A stretch of 35,687 bases of DNA from positions 1 through 35,687 of the forward strand of contig DAHUYL010000137.1 in the NCBI GenBank assembly GCA_027315255.1, read 5' to 3'. A program made the position numbers and the translations under genes. This DNA comes from Solirubrobacterales bacterium. Its GTDB lineage: Bacteria > Actinomycetota > Thermoleophilia > Solirubrobacterales > Solirubrobacteraceae. The notes beneath the pieces are model-generated. The model searched no databases. It was not told the origin of the DNA and saw only the letters and a list, made by a program, of their open reading frames with translations. Shown here piece after piece: positions 14,658-20,640 of the stretch; positions within the stretch are counted from its first letter, which is position 1; each line of letters opens with the position of its first letter.

Positions 14658-14708
14658 TGGCCCGACCCCCTAGACGCCCTACGGAGGATGATTTGCCGGG
14701 ACGTTGAA

Positions 14709-14790
14709 GGCCGGACCTCGGTCGCATTTTGCGGGGGTTTGCCTGGCCGGAGAGTGGCTCCGGCTGACCCCATACGAAGGAGGTCCGGCC
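14709..14790 (+). ncRNA. Structured leader, candidate IS110 bridge RNA region
   Basis: Outer stem GGCCGGACCTC (14709-14719) with GAGGTCCGGCC (14780-14790), perfect 11 bp. Inner stem GCCGGAG (14746-14752) with CTCCGGC (14758-14764), perfect 7 bp with a 5-base loop. IS110-group elements encode a bridge RNA in the non-coding end upstream of the transposase, which makes this a candidate remnant. The AAGGAGG at 14777-14783 is partly inside the outer stem, so sequestering the ribosome binding site is an alternative or additional role. Confidence 0.4.
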
Positions 14791-14807
14791 GTGACTGGAA
14801 CGATGAC

Positions 14808-15873
14808 ATGGCCGCGATCGATGTCCACGCGCGCTCGACGTATGCGGCGTCGCTGGACGTGCTGACCGGCGAGCTGTCGAGGCGGCGGTTCGATACCGGG
14901 GCGGTGGAGCCGGTGGTCGAGTGGCTGGGTGGCTTGCCTGGGCCGGTGCGTGCCTGCTACGAGGCGGGACCGACCGGGCTCGGGATGTATCGGGCGGCGG
15001 TGGCGGCGGGGGTCGACTGTCAGGTGATCGCGCCGTCGGAGCCGCCACGGCCGGCTGGGGATCGCAACAGGTCCGACCGCCGGGATACCGACCTGCTCTC
15101 GCGGCAGTTGATGACCGGGGCGCTCACGCCGGTCGCGGTTCCCTCGGCGACGTTCGAGGCCGCGCGGGATCTCGCCAGAGCGCGCGAGCAGGTCAGGCTC
15201 GACTTGATGCGCTGCCGGCATCGGCTGTCGAAGCTGCTGCTGCGTCACGGCCGGGTGTGGGACCGCACGGCGTGGACGATGGTGCACCGCCAGCGGCTTC
15301 ATGCGCAGCGGTTCGAGCAGCAGAGCACCGAGCTGGCGTTCATCGGCAACTTGGCCGCCTGCGACGGGCTGAGGGCCCGCAGAGAGGCGCTCGACGAGCG
15401 GCTCTCGAGGGTCGCGCCGGCCCCGGAGTTCTGGCCGCTGGTCCGCCGGTTGCGCGCGTTCCGTGGGATCGACACGCTCTCGGCGCTGGTCGTGGTGCTC
15501 GAGGTCGCAGACTTCACCCGGTTCCCGCGCGCGGTGCGGCTCGGCTCGTGGCTTGGGCTGGTGCCGTCCCGTCAGCAGTCCGGCGAGTCAGACGTGCCGG
15601 GTCGATCACCAAGACCGGCTCCAAGTACGCCCGGCGGATCGTGGTCGAGGCCTCTTGGCACTAGTGCCCTTCCACCGGGGCACAGCCGCGCGTTGTACGA
15701 GCGCCAGCAGGGGCTGCCCGACCACGTCCTGCGAATCGCCTCACGCGCCCAGAGCCGCCTCTACCGCGTGCACAAGCGGATGCGGGAGCGCAAGAAGCCC
15801 GGCAAATGTGGTCGTGGTCGCGTGCGCGCGCGAGCTCGCCTGCTTCCTCTGGGCCGCGGCGACCGCTCCATAG
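14808..15873 (+). pseudogene. IS110-family transposase, frameshifted
   Basis: The intact protein would have about 355 residues. The N-terminal DEDD (RuvC-like) domain is readable: Asp in AAIDVHA, Glu in CYEAGPTGLG, and the Asp pair in SDRRDTDLLSRQL. The central helical region and the start of the C-terminal Transposase_20 domain (FRGIDTLSALVVVLEV, LGLVPSRQQSGES) stay in the same frame to about 15590. The continuation GSITKTGSKYARRIVVEASWH is in another frame and ends at a stop at 15662-15664. ALYERQQGLPDHVLRIASRAQ returns to the first frame, and NVVVVACARELACFLWAAA is in the third frame. So at least three indels have broken it. AAGGAGG at 14777 fits a GTG at 14791 that is out of frame with the ATG at 14808, suggesting a fourth. 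It should be inactive. Confidence 0.85.
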
Positions 15874-16427: not shown

Positions 16428-16997
16428 CTAGGAGCCGGGGCCGAGCGTCGGGCCGCTGCCGCCCGCGCCGTGCCCGAGCCAGTCCTGGGCGAACTGCGTC
16501 AGCGCTCCTCGATCGACCGTGCGCGACCGCAGCATCCGGGTCCACGCAAGCGCGAGCACACCTTCGACACCCGGCCGCCGTGCGAGCACGACGGCCAACC
16601 CGCTGGCCGCCAGCGACCGGGTGAACGGACCCGACAGGCGGGTGGCCAGCGCCAGCAGCCCGCGCGGCGGCTGCCGCGACCCGTACAGGAACAGGACGTC
16701 CCCGAGCGACAGCGCCGACAGGATCTGGTCGTTGCTGAGCCGAGCGCCGTCGCGGCGGATCGCAGAGAGCACGTGCGGGCCGCTGGTCGGCGGGTCGGAG
16801 TCATACAGCGGCTCGATCGAGCCCTTCGGAATCAGCTGGTCGCCCTGGCTGGCGAACTGCAACCCGGGCCCGGGGCCATCGGCCACCGCCGGTTGGTCGT
16901 GACTCGTGAAGTAGCCGGAGAGGAGCGCGATCAGCAGGACTGCCAGCACGATCCCGGCGAACAGGACGATGATCCGCTCGACCCAGGCGAATCTCAT
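16428..16997 (-). CDS. DUF3105-like membrane-anchored protein
   Basis: 189 residues. One N-terminal TM segment (about 8-28), then an exported domain containing YDSDPPTSGPH (64-74), the hallmark of DUF3105 proteins, followed by SLGDVLFLYG and a C-terminal helical region. The usual DUF3105 pattern has further His residues for possible metal binding; only one clear His is present in the motif here, so the domain may be divergent. The ATG overlaps the stop codon of the upstream acyltransferase by ATGA, which fixes the start and implies coupling. Role unknown; the link to lipid storage is only by operon. Confidence 0.78.
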   Translation of the reverse strand: MRFAWVERIIVLFAGIVLAVLLIALLSGYFTSHDQPAVADGPGPGLQFASQGDQLIPKGSIEPLYDSDPPTSGPHVLSAIRRDGARLSNDQILSALSLGDVLFLYGSRQPPRGLLALATRLSGPFTRSLAASGLAVVLARRPGVEGVLALAWTRMLRSRTVDRGALTQFAQDWLGHGAGGSGPTLGPGS

Positions 16998-18478
16998 GAG
17001 ACCGCATGGATCCGGCGCTGGCCGCGCCGCCCACCACGCGCTGCGGACGCGCCCGGCCCGGCCGGCCCGGCCGGCGTGACCGGGGCGAGGGCTCGGGCGG
17101 TCGCGACCAGTTCGTCGATCGCGGTTCGCAGCTCGGCGGCAAGCACTTCCACGTCCGACAGCGCGTCGTAGTCGGCGACCAGCCCGAACGCCACCGTGCC
17201 GTTGTAGCTCATCGCGGCGACCCCGAGCACGGTGTTCTCCGCCAGCGGGACCATCGGGTAGATCGCCTCGAGCCGGCGTCCGAGCATGTACAACGGCTGC
17301 TGCGGCCCGGGTACGTTCGTGACGACCAGGTTGAACATCCGCTGGCGCGCTTGCAGGCGCGCCGCCTGCGCGAGGATCGTCGGCGGGGCGAATGTCGCCA
17401 GCTCGGTCAGCGCGCGTGCCCCGAGCACCTGGCCGGAGCGCTTGAGCGCAGCCGTGGCGGCGACGATCTCCTCGAGCCGCCGGGCGGGGTCTGCGATCCC
17501 GACCGGCAGCGGCACCCAGATTGCCGCCACGCGGTTGCCGACCGTGCCGTGCTCGGCGGTGTCGCGGACGGACACCGGCACCATTGCGCGCAGGACCAGA
17601 TCTTTCGTCGGCTGACCGTGCGCTCGCAGATGGGCGCCGAGCGCTCCCGCTACCGCCGCCAGCACGACGTCGTTCACCGTCCCGCCGAGCGCGTCCTTGA
17701 CGGCCTTCAGCGCGGCCAGCGTGACCTGGACCCAGGTGACGCGCCGGTGCGGGCCGATCCGGACGTTCAACGGGCTTCGGGGCGCCGGGCGGACGCCGGC
17801 GCTCGTGATCGCGCTGAGCCCGGCAGCGACATCGCCGGCCTTTGCGACCAGCTCCCCGGGCCGGCGGGCGGCCGCCCGCAGCTCGCGCGCGAGCTCGAGG
17901 GGGGCGGTGGCGCGCTCCAGTAGCGCGTCGGCGAGCAGCTGCGACGAAGTCGGGAGCGGCCGCGGGATCCACGGCGCAGCGGGCGGCGCCACCGGCGCCG
18001 GCTCCGGCGAGACGTCGAACAGCACCGTCAGGAGGTCGACCCCGGACACGCCGTCGACGAGCGCATGGTGGGTCTTGGTCAGGATCGCGAACCGTCCGTC
18101 AGCCAGGCCCTCGACCAGCCACAGCTCCCACAGCGGCCGTGAGCGGTCGAGCGCCTGCGAGAACACGCGTCCTGCGAGCCGCTTCAGCTGGGCGTCGCCG
18201 CCCGGCCGCGGAAGCGCAGTGTGGCGGACGTGGTAGGTCAGCTGGAAGTGGGGATCGTCGACCCACGCTGGCCGGCCCTGGCGCAACGGCACGAACGCGA
18301 GCCGCTGGCGGTAGCGGGCAACCAGGTGCAGCCGGCCGCCGATCGCGGTGAGCAGGTCGTGGTACGCCGGGGCATCGCCGCAGAACACGGCGCAGGCGGC
18401 CACGTGCATGTGGGTTGCACCGCCCTCGAGATGCAGGAACGAGCTGTCGAGCCCGGTCAGCCGGTCGGGATTCGCCAC
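16994..18478 (-). CDS. Wax ester synthase / diacylglycerol acyltransferase (WS/DGAT)
   Basis: 494 residues from GTG 18478. The enzyme esterifies acyl-CoA with diacylglycerol or fatty alcohol to make storage triacylglycerol or wax esters at the membrane. The catalytic HHXXXDG motif is intact as HHALVDG (137-143, His138 and Asp142 key). PLWELWLVEGL just before it and the NDVVLA and NVPGP blocks further on are also typical. The N-terminus RLTGLDSSFLHLEGG matches the family start, which favours this GTG over an ATG 60 bases upstream. GAGAAT (18485-18490, minus) is six bases before the GTG. It is followed by a coupled DUF3105-like gene and is divergent from the riboswitch-controlled DPBB protein gene. 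Confidence 0.93.
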   Translation of the reverse strand: MANPDRLTGLDSSFLHLEGGATHMHVAACAVFCGDAPAYHDLLTAIGGRLHLVARYRQRLAFVPLRQGRPAWVDDPHFQLTYHVRHTALPRPGGDAQLKRLAGRVFSQALDRSRPLWELWLVEGLADGRFAILTKTHHALVDGVSGVDLLTVLFDVSPEPAPVAPPAAPWIPRPLPTSSQLLADALLERATAPLELARELRAAARRPGELVAKAGDVAAGLSAITSAGVRPAPRSPLNVRIGPHRRVTWVQVTLAALKAVKDALGGTVNDVVLAAVAGALGAHLRAHGQPTKDLVLRAMVPVSVRDTAEHGTVGNRVAAIWVPLPVGIADPARRLEEIVAATAALKRSGQVLGARALTELATFAPPTILAQAARLQARQRMFNLVVTNVPGPQQPLYMLGRRLEAIYPMVPLAENTVLGVAAMSYNGTVAFGLVADYDALSDVEVLAAELRTAIDELVATARALAPVTPAGPAGPGASAARGGRRGQRRIHAVS

Positions 18479-18484
18479 GGGGTG

Positions 18485-18508
18485 ATTCTCGCAGGGGCAC
18501 CGTGCCCC
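18485..18508 (-). promoter_or_regulatory. Promoter and palindromic operator candidate of WS/DGAT
   Basis: GAGAAT (complement 18485-18490) is a -10 candidate six bases from the GTG. Directly upstream, GGGGCAC (18494-18500) and GTGCCCC (18502-18508) form a perfect 7-bp inverted repeat with a one-base centre, placed where a repressor would block polymerase. Confidence 0.45.
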
Positions 18509-18539: not shown

Positions 18540-18555
18540 TGTGACCGGTGTCACA
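18540..18555. promoter_or_regulatory. CRP/GlxR-type operator, perfect TGTGA-N6-TCACA
   Basis: TGTGACCGGTGTCACA matches the CRP half-sites on both sides with the canonical six-base spacing. Its centre is at about -41.5 relative to a start predicted from CACACT (18577-18582) for the rightward DPBB gene, the class II activator position. It is at about -69 for the leftward WS/DGAT promoter. Both assignments depend on predicted start sites. Confidence 0.75.
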
Positions 18556-18576
18556 CGCGCTGGCCGACCGAGCTGC

Positions 18577-18582
18577 CACACT
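18577..18582 (+). promoter_or_regulatory. -10 candidate for the riboswitch-DPBB transcript
   Basis: CACACT, predicting a transcript start near 18589, just before the riboswitch. No -35 is recognisable, as expected for an activator-dependent promoter with the operator at -41.5. Confidence 0.4.
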
Positions 18583-18596
18583 CTCGCGGTCGACCT

Positions 18597-18785
18597 GCCG
18601 AGTCGCCTTCGCCCGGTGCGATGGCGAACGGGGGACCCAATGCCGGGTGTGCATCTCTCCACCCGGCCGGGGCGAATCGGTTGCCCGGCCCACAGCCGGC
18701 CGCAGCCGTAGCGACGACGCGGAGCCGCTCTGAGCGGCTCACGGCGTCGCCGCGAGCCCGTCAGCTAACCCCGTAGGCGCCCGGT
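18597..18785 (+). promoter_or_regulatory. ydaO/yuaA-type c-di-AMP riboswitch
   Basis: The conserved blocks appear in the right order. They are GGGGGACCCAA (18630-18640), GGGGCGAATC (18669-18678), a variable stem GAGCCGCT/AGCGGCTC (18722-18729, 18733-18740) enclosed by GCGACG/CGTCGC (18711-18716, 18745-18750), and finally GAGCCCGTCAGCTAACCCCG followed by TAGGCG (18754-18779). CGCC near 18604 can close the P1 stem with GGCG at 18776-18779. In Actinobacteria this class precedes wall hydrolase genes and lowers expression when c-di-AMP binds. No intrinsic terminator is seen downstream; control may act on the AAGGAGG at 18798-18804. Exact ends are approximate. Confidence 0.92.
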
Positions 18786-18797
18786 CGGAAGAACAAG

Positions 18798-18804
18798 AAG
18801 GAGG
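18798..18804 (+). promoter_or_regulatory. Shine-Dalgarno of the DPBB gene
   Basis: AAGGAGG, nine bases before the ATG at 18814 and about 18 bases after the P1 stem of the riboswitch. A strong site, so translation is a plausible point of control. Confidence 0.75.
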
Positions 18805-18813
18805 CCCTCAGGG

Positions 18814-19536
18814 ATGAGGACCAGACATGTCCCGCACGCAGCCGAATTGGCCGCTGTGGTTGTGATGCTCGCGATTCCCAGCTCGGCCTACGCGCTGACG
18901 AGCGGTCAGCCCCGTGGCCGGGTCCCATTGACCAGGCACCCCGTCCAGCAGCGGCCGAGGCACCCCGCCGATCGGCACCGGCCGCGCCATCCGCGTCCCC
19001 AGCCGGTCCGCTTCCACATCGTCGACCGGGTCGTCGACACGGTCGCAGGCCGGCCAGCGACGGTGCACGGCTGGCTCGTGCCGGGCGCTGCGGGGCGCAC
19101 GGTCCGGCTGCTGGCCGGCGCCGGGCGCGGCTGGGCGCCGCTCGCGACAGCCCGTACCGGCCGCTACGGGGGGTTCACGCTGCGTTACGTGTTGAGCACC
19201 ACCGGGACCCGCTGGTTGCGCGTCAGCTTTGGCGGCGACCACTTCAGCAAGGCGAGCACGGCGCCCGCGGGCAGCACGGTCGCCTTGACCGCAAGGGTCG
19301 CATCGTGGTACGTCGACGCGGGCAGCACCGCCTGCGGGTTCCACGCGTTCTACGGAGTCGCCAGCCGCACGCTGCCGTGCGGCACCCACGTGACCTTGAG
19401 CTACCAGGGCCGAAGCGTGACCGCGACGGTCGACGACCGCGGCCCGTATGTCTACGGCCGCGATTACGACCTCAACCAGAACACCGCCGCCGCGCTCGGA
19501 ATGTACGGGGTGGCGACTGTGCTGGCGTCCGCCTGA
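18814..19536 (+). CDS. Secreted RlpA-like double-psi beta-barrel (DPBB) protein
   Basis: 240 residues. Signal peptide about 1-27 (hydrophobic AAVVVMLAIPSSAYA), basic Pro/His/Arg-rich linker 30-66, an Ig-like beta domain about 67-160, then a DPBB domain 163-238. DPBB proteins of this type (RlpA, and the barrel attached to some Rpf proteins) act on or bind peptidoglycan. ASWYVDAG, TACGF, LPCGT and VDDRGPYVYGRDYDL are readable; Cys174 and Cys189 probably form a disulfide. The residue normally His in the A-H-R-TLP motif is Ser184 here, while the Asp of DDRGP (207/208) is kept, so lytic activity may be altered. The ATG is set by a strong Shine-Dalgarno behind a c-di-AMP riboswitch. Confidence 0.88.
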   Translation: MRTRHVPHAAELAAVVVMLAIPSSAYALTSGQPRGRVPLTRHPVQQRPRHPADRHRPRHPRPQPVRFHIVDRVVDTVAGRPATVHGWLVPGAAGRTVRLLAGAGRGWAPLATARTGRYGGFTLRYVLSTTGTRWLRVSFGGDHFSKASTAPAGSTVALTARVASWYVDAGSTACGFHAFYGVASRTLPCGTHVTLSYQGRSVTATVDDRGPYVYGRDYDLNQNTAAALGMYGVATVLASA

Positions 19537-19572: not shown

Positions 19573-20640
19573 TTGCCTGTCGTGGACGGCCGCTGCGTCG
19601 CGCACCTCGACATGGACGCGTTCTACGTGTCGGTCGAGCTGCGCCGCCGGCCGCAGCTGCGCGGAGCGCCGGTGGTCGTCTCCGGCAGCGGACCGCGCGC
19701 CGTCGTCACCACCGCCTCCTACGAGGCACGCCGCTACGGGGTCGGCTCGGCGATCCCGGCCGCGCGGGCGCGCCGCCTGTGCCCGCACGCCACCTTCCTC
19801 GAGCCCGACTTCGACTACTACCGGGCGGCGTCTCGAGAGGTCATGGCGATCGTCCGCGAGCATGTCGAGCGGGTCGAGGTGGTCGGGCTCGACGAGGCCT
19901 ACCTCGAGCTGACCGGCCTGCCAGCGCCAAAGGCCGGAATGCGGCGTCTGCGTGCCGAGATCGAGCGCGTCACCGGGTTGACGTCGTCGGTCGGGATCGG
20001 GCCCAACAAGCTGGTTGCGAAGGTCGCGTCCGATGCCGAGAAGCCCGGCGGCTTCGTCGTCCTCAGCCGCGAGCAGGCGTGCGTCCGGTTCGCCGACGCT
20101 CCGTGCGGGATGATCCCGGGAATCGGGGAGCGAACGGTGCAGCGGCTGGCCGCGCTCGGGATCCGGACGGTCGGACAGCTGGCAGCCGCTGACAGCGCGG
20201 CCCTCGCGACCGGGGGGTTCGGTGGCCGGATTCCCGAGCACCTCAGCGCGCTCGCCCGGTTCGAGCACGAGGGGGCGGTGACGGAGGAGCGCAAGGTGGC
20301 CTCGGAGTCGCGCGAGACGACTTTCGACGCCGACGTCGCCGACGCAGGCGAGCTCGAGCGGAAGCTGTCGCGGCTGACCGCCGAGCTGTGCGACGCGCTC
20401 GAGCGCCGCCACCTGCAAGGGCGCACGATCGGGATCAAGGTGCGGCTCGACGACTTCTCCACGCACACGCGCGCACGGACGCTCGCAGCGCCCGTGCGCG
20501 CCGCGGCGCACGTCGAACCGGTCGCGCTCGAGCTGCTGCGCCGGTTCGCCGCATCGCGCCCGGTGCGGCTGCTCGGCGTGCGCGTCGCCGGGCTCGAGCC
20601 GGTCGGCGAAGCGATGGCTCAACTGAGCCTGAACGTGTGA
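19573..20640 (+). CDS. dinB: DNA polymerase IV (Y family)
   Basis: 355 residues if TTG 19573 is the start; GTG 19582 in frame is an equally possible start. Translesion polymerase. The catalytic acidic residues are present in HLDMDAFYVSVE (Asp13, Asp15) and VVGLDEAYLEL (Asp107, Glu108). The little finger and helix-hairpin-helix parts follow (SVGIGPNKLVAKVASDAEKP, IPGIGERTVQRLAALGI). The C-terminus lacks an obvious beta-clamp-binding QLxLF end: the protein stops at MAQLSLNV, in which QLSLN may serve as a weak clamp motif. No LexA-type box is seen upstream in the 36 bases after the DPBB gene. Its stop is one base from the stop of the convergent thioredoxin gene. Confidence 0.95.
   Translation: MPVVDGRCVAHLDMDAFYVSVELRRRPQLRGAPVVVSGSGPRAVVTTASYEARRYGVGSAIPAARARRLCPHATFLEPDFDYYRAASREVMAIVREHVERVEVVGLDEAYLELTGLPAPKAGMRRLRAEIERVTGLTSSVGIGPNKLVAKVASDAEKPGGFVVLSREQACVRFADAPCGMIPGIGERTVQRLAALGIRTVGQLAAADSAALATGGFGGRIPEHLSALARFEHEGAVTEERKVASESRETTFDADVADAGELERKLSRLTAELCDALERRHLQGRTIGIKVRLDDFSTHTRARTLAAPVRAAAHVEPVALELLRRFAASRPVRLLGVRVAGLEPVGEAMAQLSLNV

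What the first reader, a model, noticed from the sequence alone, without database searches (positions are those of the whole stretch)
18540..18804. A cAMP-type operator and a c-di-AMP riboswitch stacked in front of a wall-protein gene
A perfect TGTGA-N6-TCACA (18540-18555) is centred at -41.5 from the start predicted by CACACT (18577-18582). The transcript then begins just before a clear ydaO-type riboswitch (about 18597-18785), and the gene encodes a secreted DPBB protein. The same combination, Crp plus ydaO riboswitch, is known for rpfA in Streptomyces. Here it appears on a different wall protein, and the operator is shared with a divergent triacylglycerol/wax ester synthase gene. One switch could link carbon status, osmotic/wall signalling and storage lipid synthesis. 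The motifs are seen in sequence; the logic is inferred.
Basis: partly seen in the sequence, partly recalled or inferred. Interest (0 to 1): 0.8.

Follow-up and report, generated by a model that had tools for sequence, protein, structure and literature searches.

The report
cAMP-site promoter feeding a c-di-AMP riboswitch
A secreted cell-wall-type protein gene in a soil actinobacterium (order Solirubrobacterales) appears to be switched by two nucleotide signals in series, a cAMP-receptor (CRP) binding site that positions the promoter and a c-di-AMP riboswitch that begins right at the transcript start; the layout recurs across the order, and in several related genera a DNA-damage (LexA) site is added on top.

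Summary
The perfect TGTGA-N6-TCACA (18540-18555) is the only perfect copy in the 4.3-Mb genome. A c-di-AMP (ydaO, RF00379) riboswitch follows at 18591-18787. Rfam scores it below cut-off (28.3 vs 38 bits), but every helix is intact, orthologous leaders reach 49 bits, and covariation is strong.

Comparison supports the CRP reading: 26 of 30 orthologous leaders carry the box with at most one mismatch, against none of 31 other c-di-AMP riboswitches. A -10 element TANNNT lies 20-22 nt after the box in 41 of 56 loci (1.3 expected), placing the box at about -41.5. The genome encodes one CRP, one diadenylate cyclase (DisA) and class III cyclases.

Two claims fail or weaken. The divergent wax-ester synthase shows its own leaderless promoter at variable distance from the box, so the storage-lipid link is unsupported. 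No terminator fits, so the switch probably acts on translation.

New: in 13 genomes of four genera a LexA box covers the start site, adding a DNA-damage input; the window lacks it.

CRP plus c-di-AMP control is known for rpfA (Streptomyces) and nlpC (Corynebacterium). This is a new, order-wide instance on a double-psi beta-barrel protein. Nothing was tested in the laboratory.

The parts
18540..18555 (.). CRP-type operator TGTGACCGGTGTCACA (perfect palindromic half-sites, N6 spacer)
   Evidence: conserved in 26 of 30 orthologous leaders with at most one mismatch
18577..18582 (+). -10 hexamer CACACT; predicted +1 about 18589, so the box is centred near -41.5
   Evidence: sequence; TANNNT 20-22 nt after the box in 41 of 56 loci, 1.3 expected; none conserved on the other side
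18591..18787 (+). c-di-AMP (ydaO/yuaA, RF00379) riboswitch aptamer, P1 closing at 18591-18599 / 18776-18787
   Evidence: 28.3 bits; helices and covariation; orthologues 28-49 bits
18798..18804 (+). Shine-Dalgarno AAGGAGG, 11 nt after the aptamer; no room for an intrinsic terminator
   Evidence: sequence; same layout in most relatives; no + strand terminator-like site before the gene
18814..19536 (+). secreted protein with C-terminal double-psi beta-barrel domain (DPBB_1), 240 aa
   Evidence: RlpA subfamily model far below cut-off
16994..18478 (-). divergent wax ester/diacylglycerol acyltransferase; likely GTG start at 18478 (ORF could extend to 18538). Neighbour, not shown to be controlled by the box
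18485..18490 (-). possible -10 (GAGAAT) of a leaderless acyltransferase transcript, 12 nt before GTG 18478
   Evidence: sequence; similar hexamers before orthologues; inferred
19573..20640 (+). dinB (DNA polymerase IV), co-directional neighbour 36 nt downstream; probably a separate transcript in most relatives

Best explanation
A two-stage control region. cAMP-CRP binds 18540-18555 and, as a class II activator overlapping the -35 region, recruits RNA polymerase to a promoter whose -10 is 18577-18582. The transcript starts near 18589, so its first bases form P1 of a c-di-AMP riboswitch (18591-18787). With c-di-AMP bound, expression of the secreted DPBB protein is lowered, most likely at translation initiation because the Shine-Dalgarno follows the aptamer by 11 nt and no terminator fits. 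The protein is therefore made when cAMP is high and c-di-AMP is low. Shown by sequence and comparison: site, promoter geometry, aptamer and target. Inferred: CRP identity at the site, activation rather than repression, OFF polarity and the translational mechanism.
For: Only perfect box in the genome. Box with 0-1 mismatches in 26/30 orthologous leaders chosen without regard to the box, against 0/31 other c-di-AMP riboswitch loci. Order-wide box-plus-aptamer pattern in 46/232 genomes, reversed control 0. -10 at fixed distance in 41/56, 1.3 expected, only on the riboswitch side. RF00379 hit, orthologues up to 49 bits, covariation with 0/500 shuffles reaching it, all nine counted P2 pairs with two-sided changes, fold recovered independently. 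One stand-alone CRP with cNMP and Crp HTH domains, DisA beside radA as the only DAC, three class III cyclase matches. Precedents: CRP/GlxR plus c-di-AMP switches on rpfA and nlpC; the nlpC switch acts on translation and is OFF (PMC9960051).
Against: No experiment. The window's aptamer scores below Rfam's cut-off. Its -10 (CACACT) is weaker than the TANNNT of relatives. Forcing P1 in silico did not change Shine-Dalgarno accessibility consistently, so the expression platform is unexplained. Four of 30 orthologues lack a recognisable box. The genome is 92% complete, so another CRP-like regulator or cyclase could be missing.
Confidence: 0.77

Rival explanations
1. The box is a bidirectional operator: CRP controls both the DPBB gene and the divergent wax ester/triacylglycerol synthase, tying storage lipid to wall remodelling.
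For: The acyltransferase remains the divergent neighbour in 29 of 54 loci, including another family of the order. In the window its likely start is about 70 nt from the box centre, compatible in principle with class I activation.
Against: No conserved -10 at a fixed distance on that side. Box-to-start distance varies from about 35 to 195 nt with the gene's own -10 near its start codon.
Confidence: 0.15
2. CRP represses rather than activates: the palindrome excludes RNA polymerase from the -35 region.
For: The box covers the -35 position, where a repressor would also sit.
Against: The fixed distance of 20-22 nt between box and -10 and the absence of a -35 hexamer are what a class II activator needs; a repressor would tolerate other spacings.
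Confidence: 0.15
3. The riboswitch works by premature transcription termination, as in Bacillus ydaO.
For: Described for Bacillus ydaO; Streptomyces rpfA transcript levels rise without the riboswitch (PMC9960051, PMC10117811).
Against: About 10-25 nt separate aptamer and Shine-Dalgarno in nearly all relatives, with no hairpin-plus-T run. Rho or pausing is not excluded.
Confidence: 0.2
4. Chance: an isolated palindrome near a decayed riboswitch.
For: A perfect box is expected roughly once by chance in a genome of this size and composition (own estimate); the Rfam score is below cut-off.
Against: Conserved box, spacing and fold across genera and families.
Confidence: 0.02

Closest known systems
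rpfA leader of Streptomyces coelicolor/venezuelae (Crp plus ydaO riboswitch)
   Same: cAMP and c-di-AMP both act on a wall-related actinobacterial gene through promoter and riboswitch (PMC9960051, PMC10117811; original St-Onge 2015 not held here).
   Different: Target is a muralytic Rpf, not a DPBB protein. The original paper was not held, so its box-to-riboswitch spacing was not compared; four Streptomyces loci from a tight-spacing search had no ydaO hit.
nlpC operon of Corynebacterium glutamicum (GlxR plus c-di-AMP riboswitch)
   Same: CRP-family regulator at the promoter, c-di-AMP riboswitch in the leader, wall-acting product, no terminator, translational OFF switch (PMC9960051).
   Different: NlpC/P60 peptidase; further regulators MtrA and EsrR; class II geometry not documented in what was read.
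gbpA of Vibrio cholerae (CRP plus c-di-GMP riboswitch)
   Same: CRP and a cyclic-dinucleotide riboswitch in series on one secreted protein (PMC4545359, abstract only).
   Different: Other dinucleotide, other riboswitch class, other phylum.
SOS-controlled wall-acting genes of actinobacteria (for example Rv2719c/ChiZ; from memory)
   Same: LexA box on a gene for a wall-acting protein, as in the relatives found here.
   Different: No CRP site or riboswitch known to me; the window has no LexA box.

Membership tests
c-di-AMP riboswitch (RF00379) | covariance-model score at or above the gathering cut-off (38 bits) | tested here: not met
   28.3 bits for the window; 12 of 18 matching leaders of its genus exceed 38
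c-di-AMP riboswitch (RF00379) | full-length match with all consensus helices and conserved core (GGGGGACCCA, GGGGCGAAUC, CAGCUAACCCCGUAGGC) | tested here: met
   model positions 1-134; helices intact; invariant core across 39 leaders; covariation
c-di-AMP riboswitch (RF00379) | binds c-di-AMP and changes expression | not testable with these tools
   needs in-line probing and reporter assays; DisA is present
class II CRP-dependent promoter | TGTGA-N6-TCACA centred near -41.5 relative to the start | tested here: met
   box to -10 spacing in the window and 41 of 56 loci; start inferred, not mapped
class II CRP-dependent promoter | cAMP-binding CRP encoded in the genome | tested here: met
   C203 protein, PF00027 and PF13545; recognition helix SRESASR keeps R/E/R seen in E. 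coli SRETVGR (residue roles from memory)
class II CRP-dependent promoter | binding and cAMP-dependent activation | not testable with these tools
   needs footprinting and transcription assays
RlpA lytic transglycosylase | TIGR00413 score above cut-off | tested here: not met
   25.2 bits against 82.15
DPBB_1 domain proteins (PF03330) | PF03330 above gathering score | tested here: met
   39.9 bits against 28.8
LexA/SOS regulon | LexA box at the promoter | tested here: not met
   none near the window promoter; present in 13 genomes of four genera of the family

The most novel reading that the evidence does not exclude
Across Solirubrobacterales a single promoter-leader module integrates three signals on a secreted wall-type protein: cAMP through CRP, c-di-AMP through a riboswitch at the transcript start, and, in at least four genera, DNA damage through LexA. 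Because the one c-di-AMP cyclase found in the window's genome is the DNA-scanning DisA, DNA damage could raise expression by two routes at once (LexA cleavage, and less c-di-AMP).
Probability: 0.4. Interest if true: 0.68.

Novelty: new variant of a known kind. Interest (0 to 1): 0.52.

Why it matters
It shows that pairing a CRP-dependent promoter with a c-di-AMP riboswitch is not a peculiarity of Streptomyces or Corynebacterium but is kept, with near-fixed geometry, on another wall-type gene across an order with little molecular study. In relatives it gains a third, DNA-damage input at the same start site, which makes the proposed link between DisA, DNA integrity and wall remodelling testable in one short DNA segment. 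It also points to another c-di-AMP riboswitch without a terminator, a rare type so far.

Tried and rejected
1. Shared operator with the acyltransferase: rejected for lack of any conserved promoter geometry.
2. A DPBB-dinB operon that would place dinB under the riboswitch: attractive because dinB is co-directional in 29 loci. Set aside because about 20 of them have a TANNNT 12-17 nt before the dinB start (a leaderless promoter), sometimes with its own LexA box. In the window no such -10 is seen, so read-through is open there.
3. Same tight architecture outside the order: the eight hits in other classes and the Streptomyces, Modestobacter, Acidimicrobiaceae and other loci tested had no c-di-AMP riboswitch above cut-off. 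The exception, L134, is a MAG named only Actinomycetota.
4. Shine-Dalgarno sequestration by P1 formation: no consistent change in a partition-function test.
6. One Pfam call failed on coordinates and was not repeated, so lexA, imuB and dnaE2 were recognised by eye from their sequences.

Full report
What is there. The window is contig C206 of a 4.3-Mb draft genome. It belongs to the order Solirubrobacterales, class Thermoleophilia: record titles of loci that coincide with G-handle matches read Solirubrobacterales, Solirubrobacteraceae and, in the same genus, only 'Actinomycetes bacterium'. The sequence 18540-18555 reads TGTGACCGGTGTCACA. It is the only perfect copy in the genome. Eighteen further places have one mismatch, against nine control matches, so there is a modest excess of CRP-type sites. 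From base composition I estimate about one perfect copy by chance per genome, so the box alone would prove little; conservation decides.

The riboswitch. Rfam finds nothing at its gathering cut-off. With relaxed filters RF00379 matches end to end at 28.3 bits, E 1.2e-4. The genome holds two stronger c-di-AMP riboswitches, 81 and 50 bits. Of 19 leaders of the genus searched together, 18 match, at 28 to 49 bits, 12 of them above the cut-off. I traced the helices by hand: 62 of 63 proposed pairs form in the window. On an alignment of 39 leaders, 45 of 62 pairs show two-sided changes, and no shuffle out of 500 reached any of the measures. The slid controls fall from 81% to about 40% paired. RNAalifold recovered P1, P2 and the core helices by itself. 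P2 is a 10-position hairpin stem (one mismatch) in the window, and the Rfam alignment misplaces it, which helps explain the low score. The outermost pairs of P1 (18591-18595 with 18783-18787) are kept in only about half of the sequences.

The promoter. Thirty best DPBB orthologues were chosen by protein similarity only. Nineteen have a perfect box and seven a box with one mismatch in the leader. In 31 other c-di-AMP riboswitch loci from the same set of genomes no box with at most one mismatch lies from 600 nt upstream to 150 nt into the aptamer. An order-wide search for box, 70-95 nt, then GGGGNNCCNA matched 46 of 232 genomes with no match of the reversed control. In 56 de-duplicated loci TANNNT lies 20, 21 or 22 nt after the box in 41 (1.3 expected from shuffles), and NANNNT in 54. 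The other side of the palindrome has no such element. This fixes the start about 41 nt from the box centre, the class II position, and makes the promoter point at the riboswitch. In the window the hexamer is CACACT, a weaker form shared by several members of its genus.

The expression platform. After the aptamer come about 10-25 nt and a Shine-Dalgarno in most relatives. No terminator-like site lies on the + strand before the gene. The precedent is the Corynebacterium glutamicum nlpC switch, which lacks a terminator and acts on translation as an OFF switch (PMC9960051). A thermodynamic test of Shine-Dalgarno access gave no clear answer, so the coupling remains unexplained.

Trans-acting parts. 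The genome encodes one stand-alone CRP (C203, cNMP_binding plus HTH_Crp_2), related to Mycobacterium tuberculosis CRP (E 2.8e-24) and E. coli CAP (E about 4e-19). The other cNMP domains that I could inspect sit in other kinds of proteins; one locus (L118) gave no readable ORF. There is one diadenylate cyclase, a DisA with a C-terminal helix-hairpin-helix, beside radA (gene names read from the translations), and three class III cyclase matches, of which only one is strong.

Target and neighbours. The gene encodes a secreted protein with a C-terminal double-psi beta-barrel (PF03330). It does not meet the RlpA subfamily model, so 'wall protein' is a reasonable but untested label. Actinobacterial c-di-AMP riboswitches are mostly on wall-related genes (PMC9960051). 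The divergent acyltransferase is a frequent neighbour, but its promoter appears independent. dinB lies downstream in many relatives, but mostly with its own leaderless -10.

A third input in relatives. In 13 genomes from four genera of the family a GAACN4GTTC palindrome lies 28-31 nt after the box, over the start site. One further locus with a one-mismatch box has it too (L031). In one of these genomes (G035) the same motif precedes genes that I read as lexA, dnaE2, imuB and a second dinB, so it is very likely the LexA box. The motif occurs 19 times there against 0 for the reversed control. The window's own genus lacks it at this promoter. Since DisA makes less c-di-AMP at stalled forks in Bacillus subtilis (PMC8227628), an OFF riboswitch and LexA cleavage would push in the same direction. 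This is inference.

Verdict. The two-signal logic is a known kind with a new target and order-wide conservation. The storage-lipid link is not supported. The added LexA site in relatives is the most novel element.

Noticed in passing
L026, L027, L086, L087, L089, L090, L261, L263, L267-L270, L273, L295-L300, L302-L308: LexA box (GAACN4GTTC) over the predicted start site of the DPBB gene in four genera, between the -10 and the riboswitch.
   Followed up: yes
L292, L293, L294, L309, L310: CRP box followed by a LexA box also in front of a Lys/Ala-rich, histone H1- or phasin-like gene in two families of the order. Possible second CRP-plus-SOS target.
   Followed up: partly
window 19573-20640 and orthologous loci: dinB directly downstream of the DPBB gene in many relatives, mostly with a leaderless -10 of its own and sometimes a LexA box (L024, L025, L027, L090, L093).
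   Followed up: partly
L002 (G000:C216:8427-8585, minus strand) with G000:C216:7516-7725: A second DPBB paralogue in the same genome appears to lie under a second c-di-AMP riboswitch, without a CRP box.
   Followed up: partly
L001 1501-1657 and the ORF from about 1665: The strongest c-di-AMP riboswitch of the genome (81 bits) precedes a short protein with a C-terminal hydrophobic segment, not identified.
   Followed up: no
window about 14688-15700: ORF start resembles a transposase of the IS110 type (MAAIDVHARSTYAASLD...), apparently frameshifted; read by eye only.
   Followed up: no
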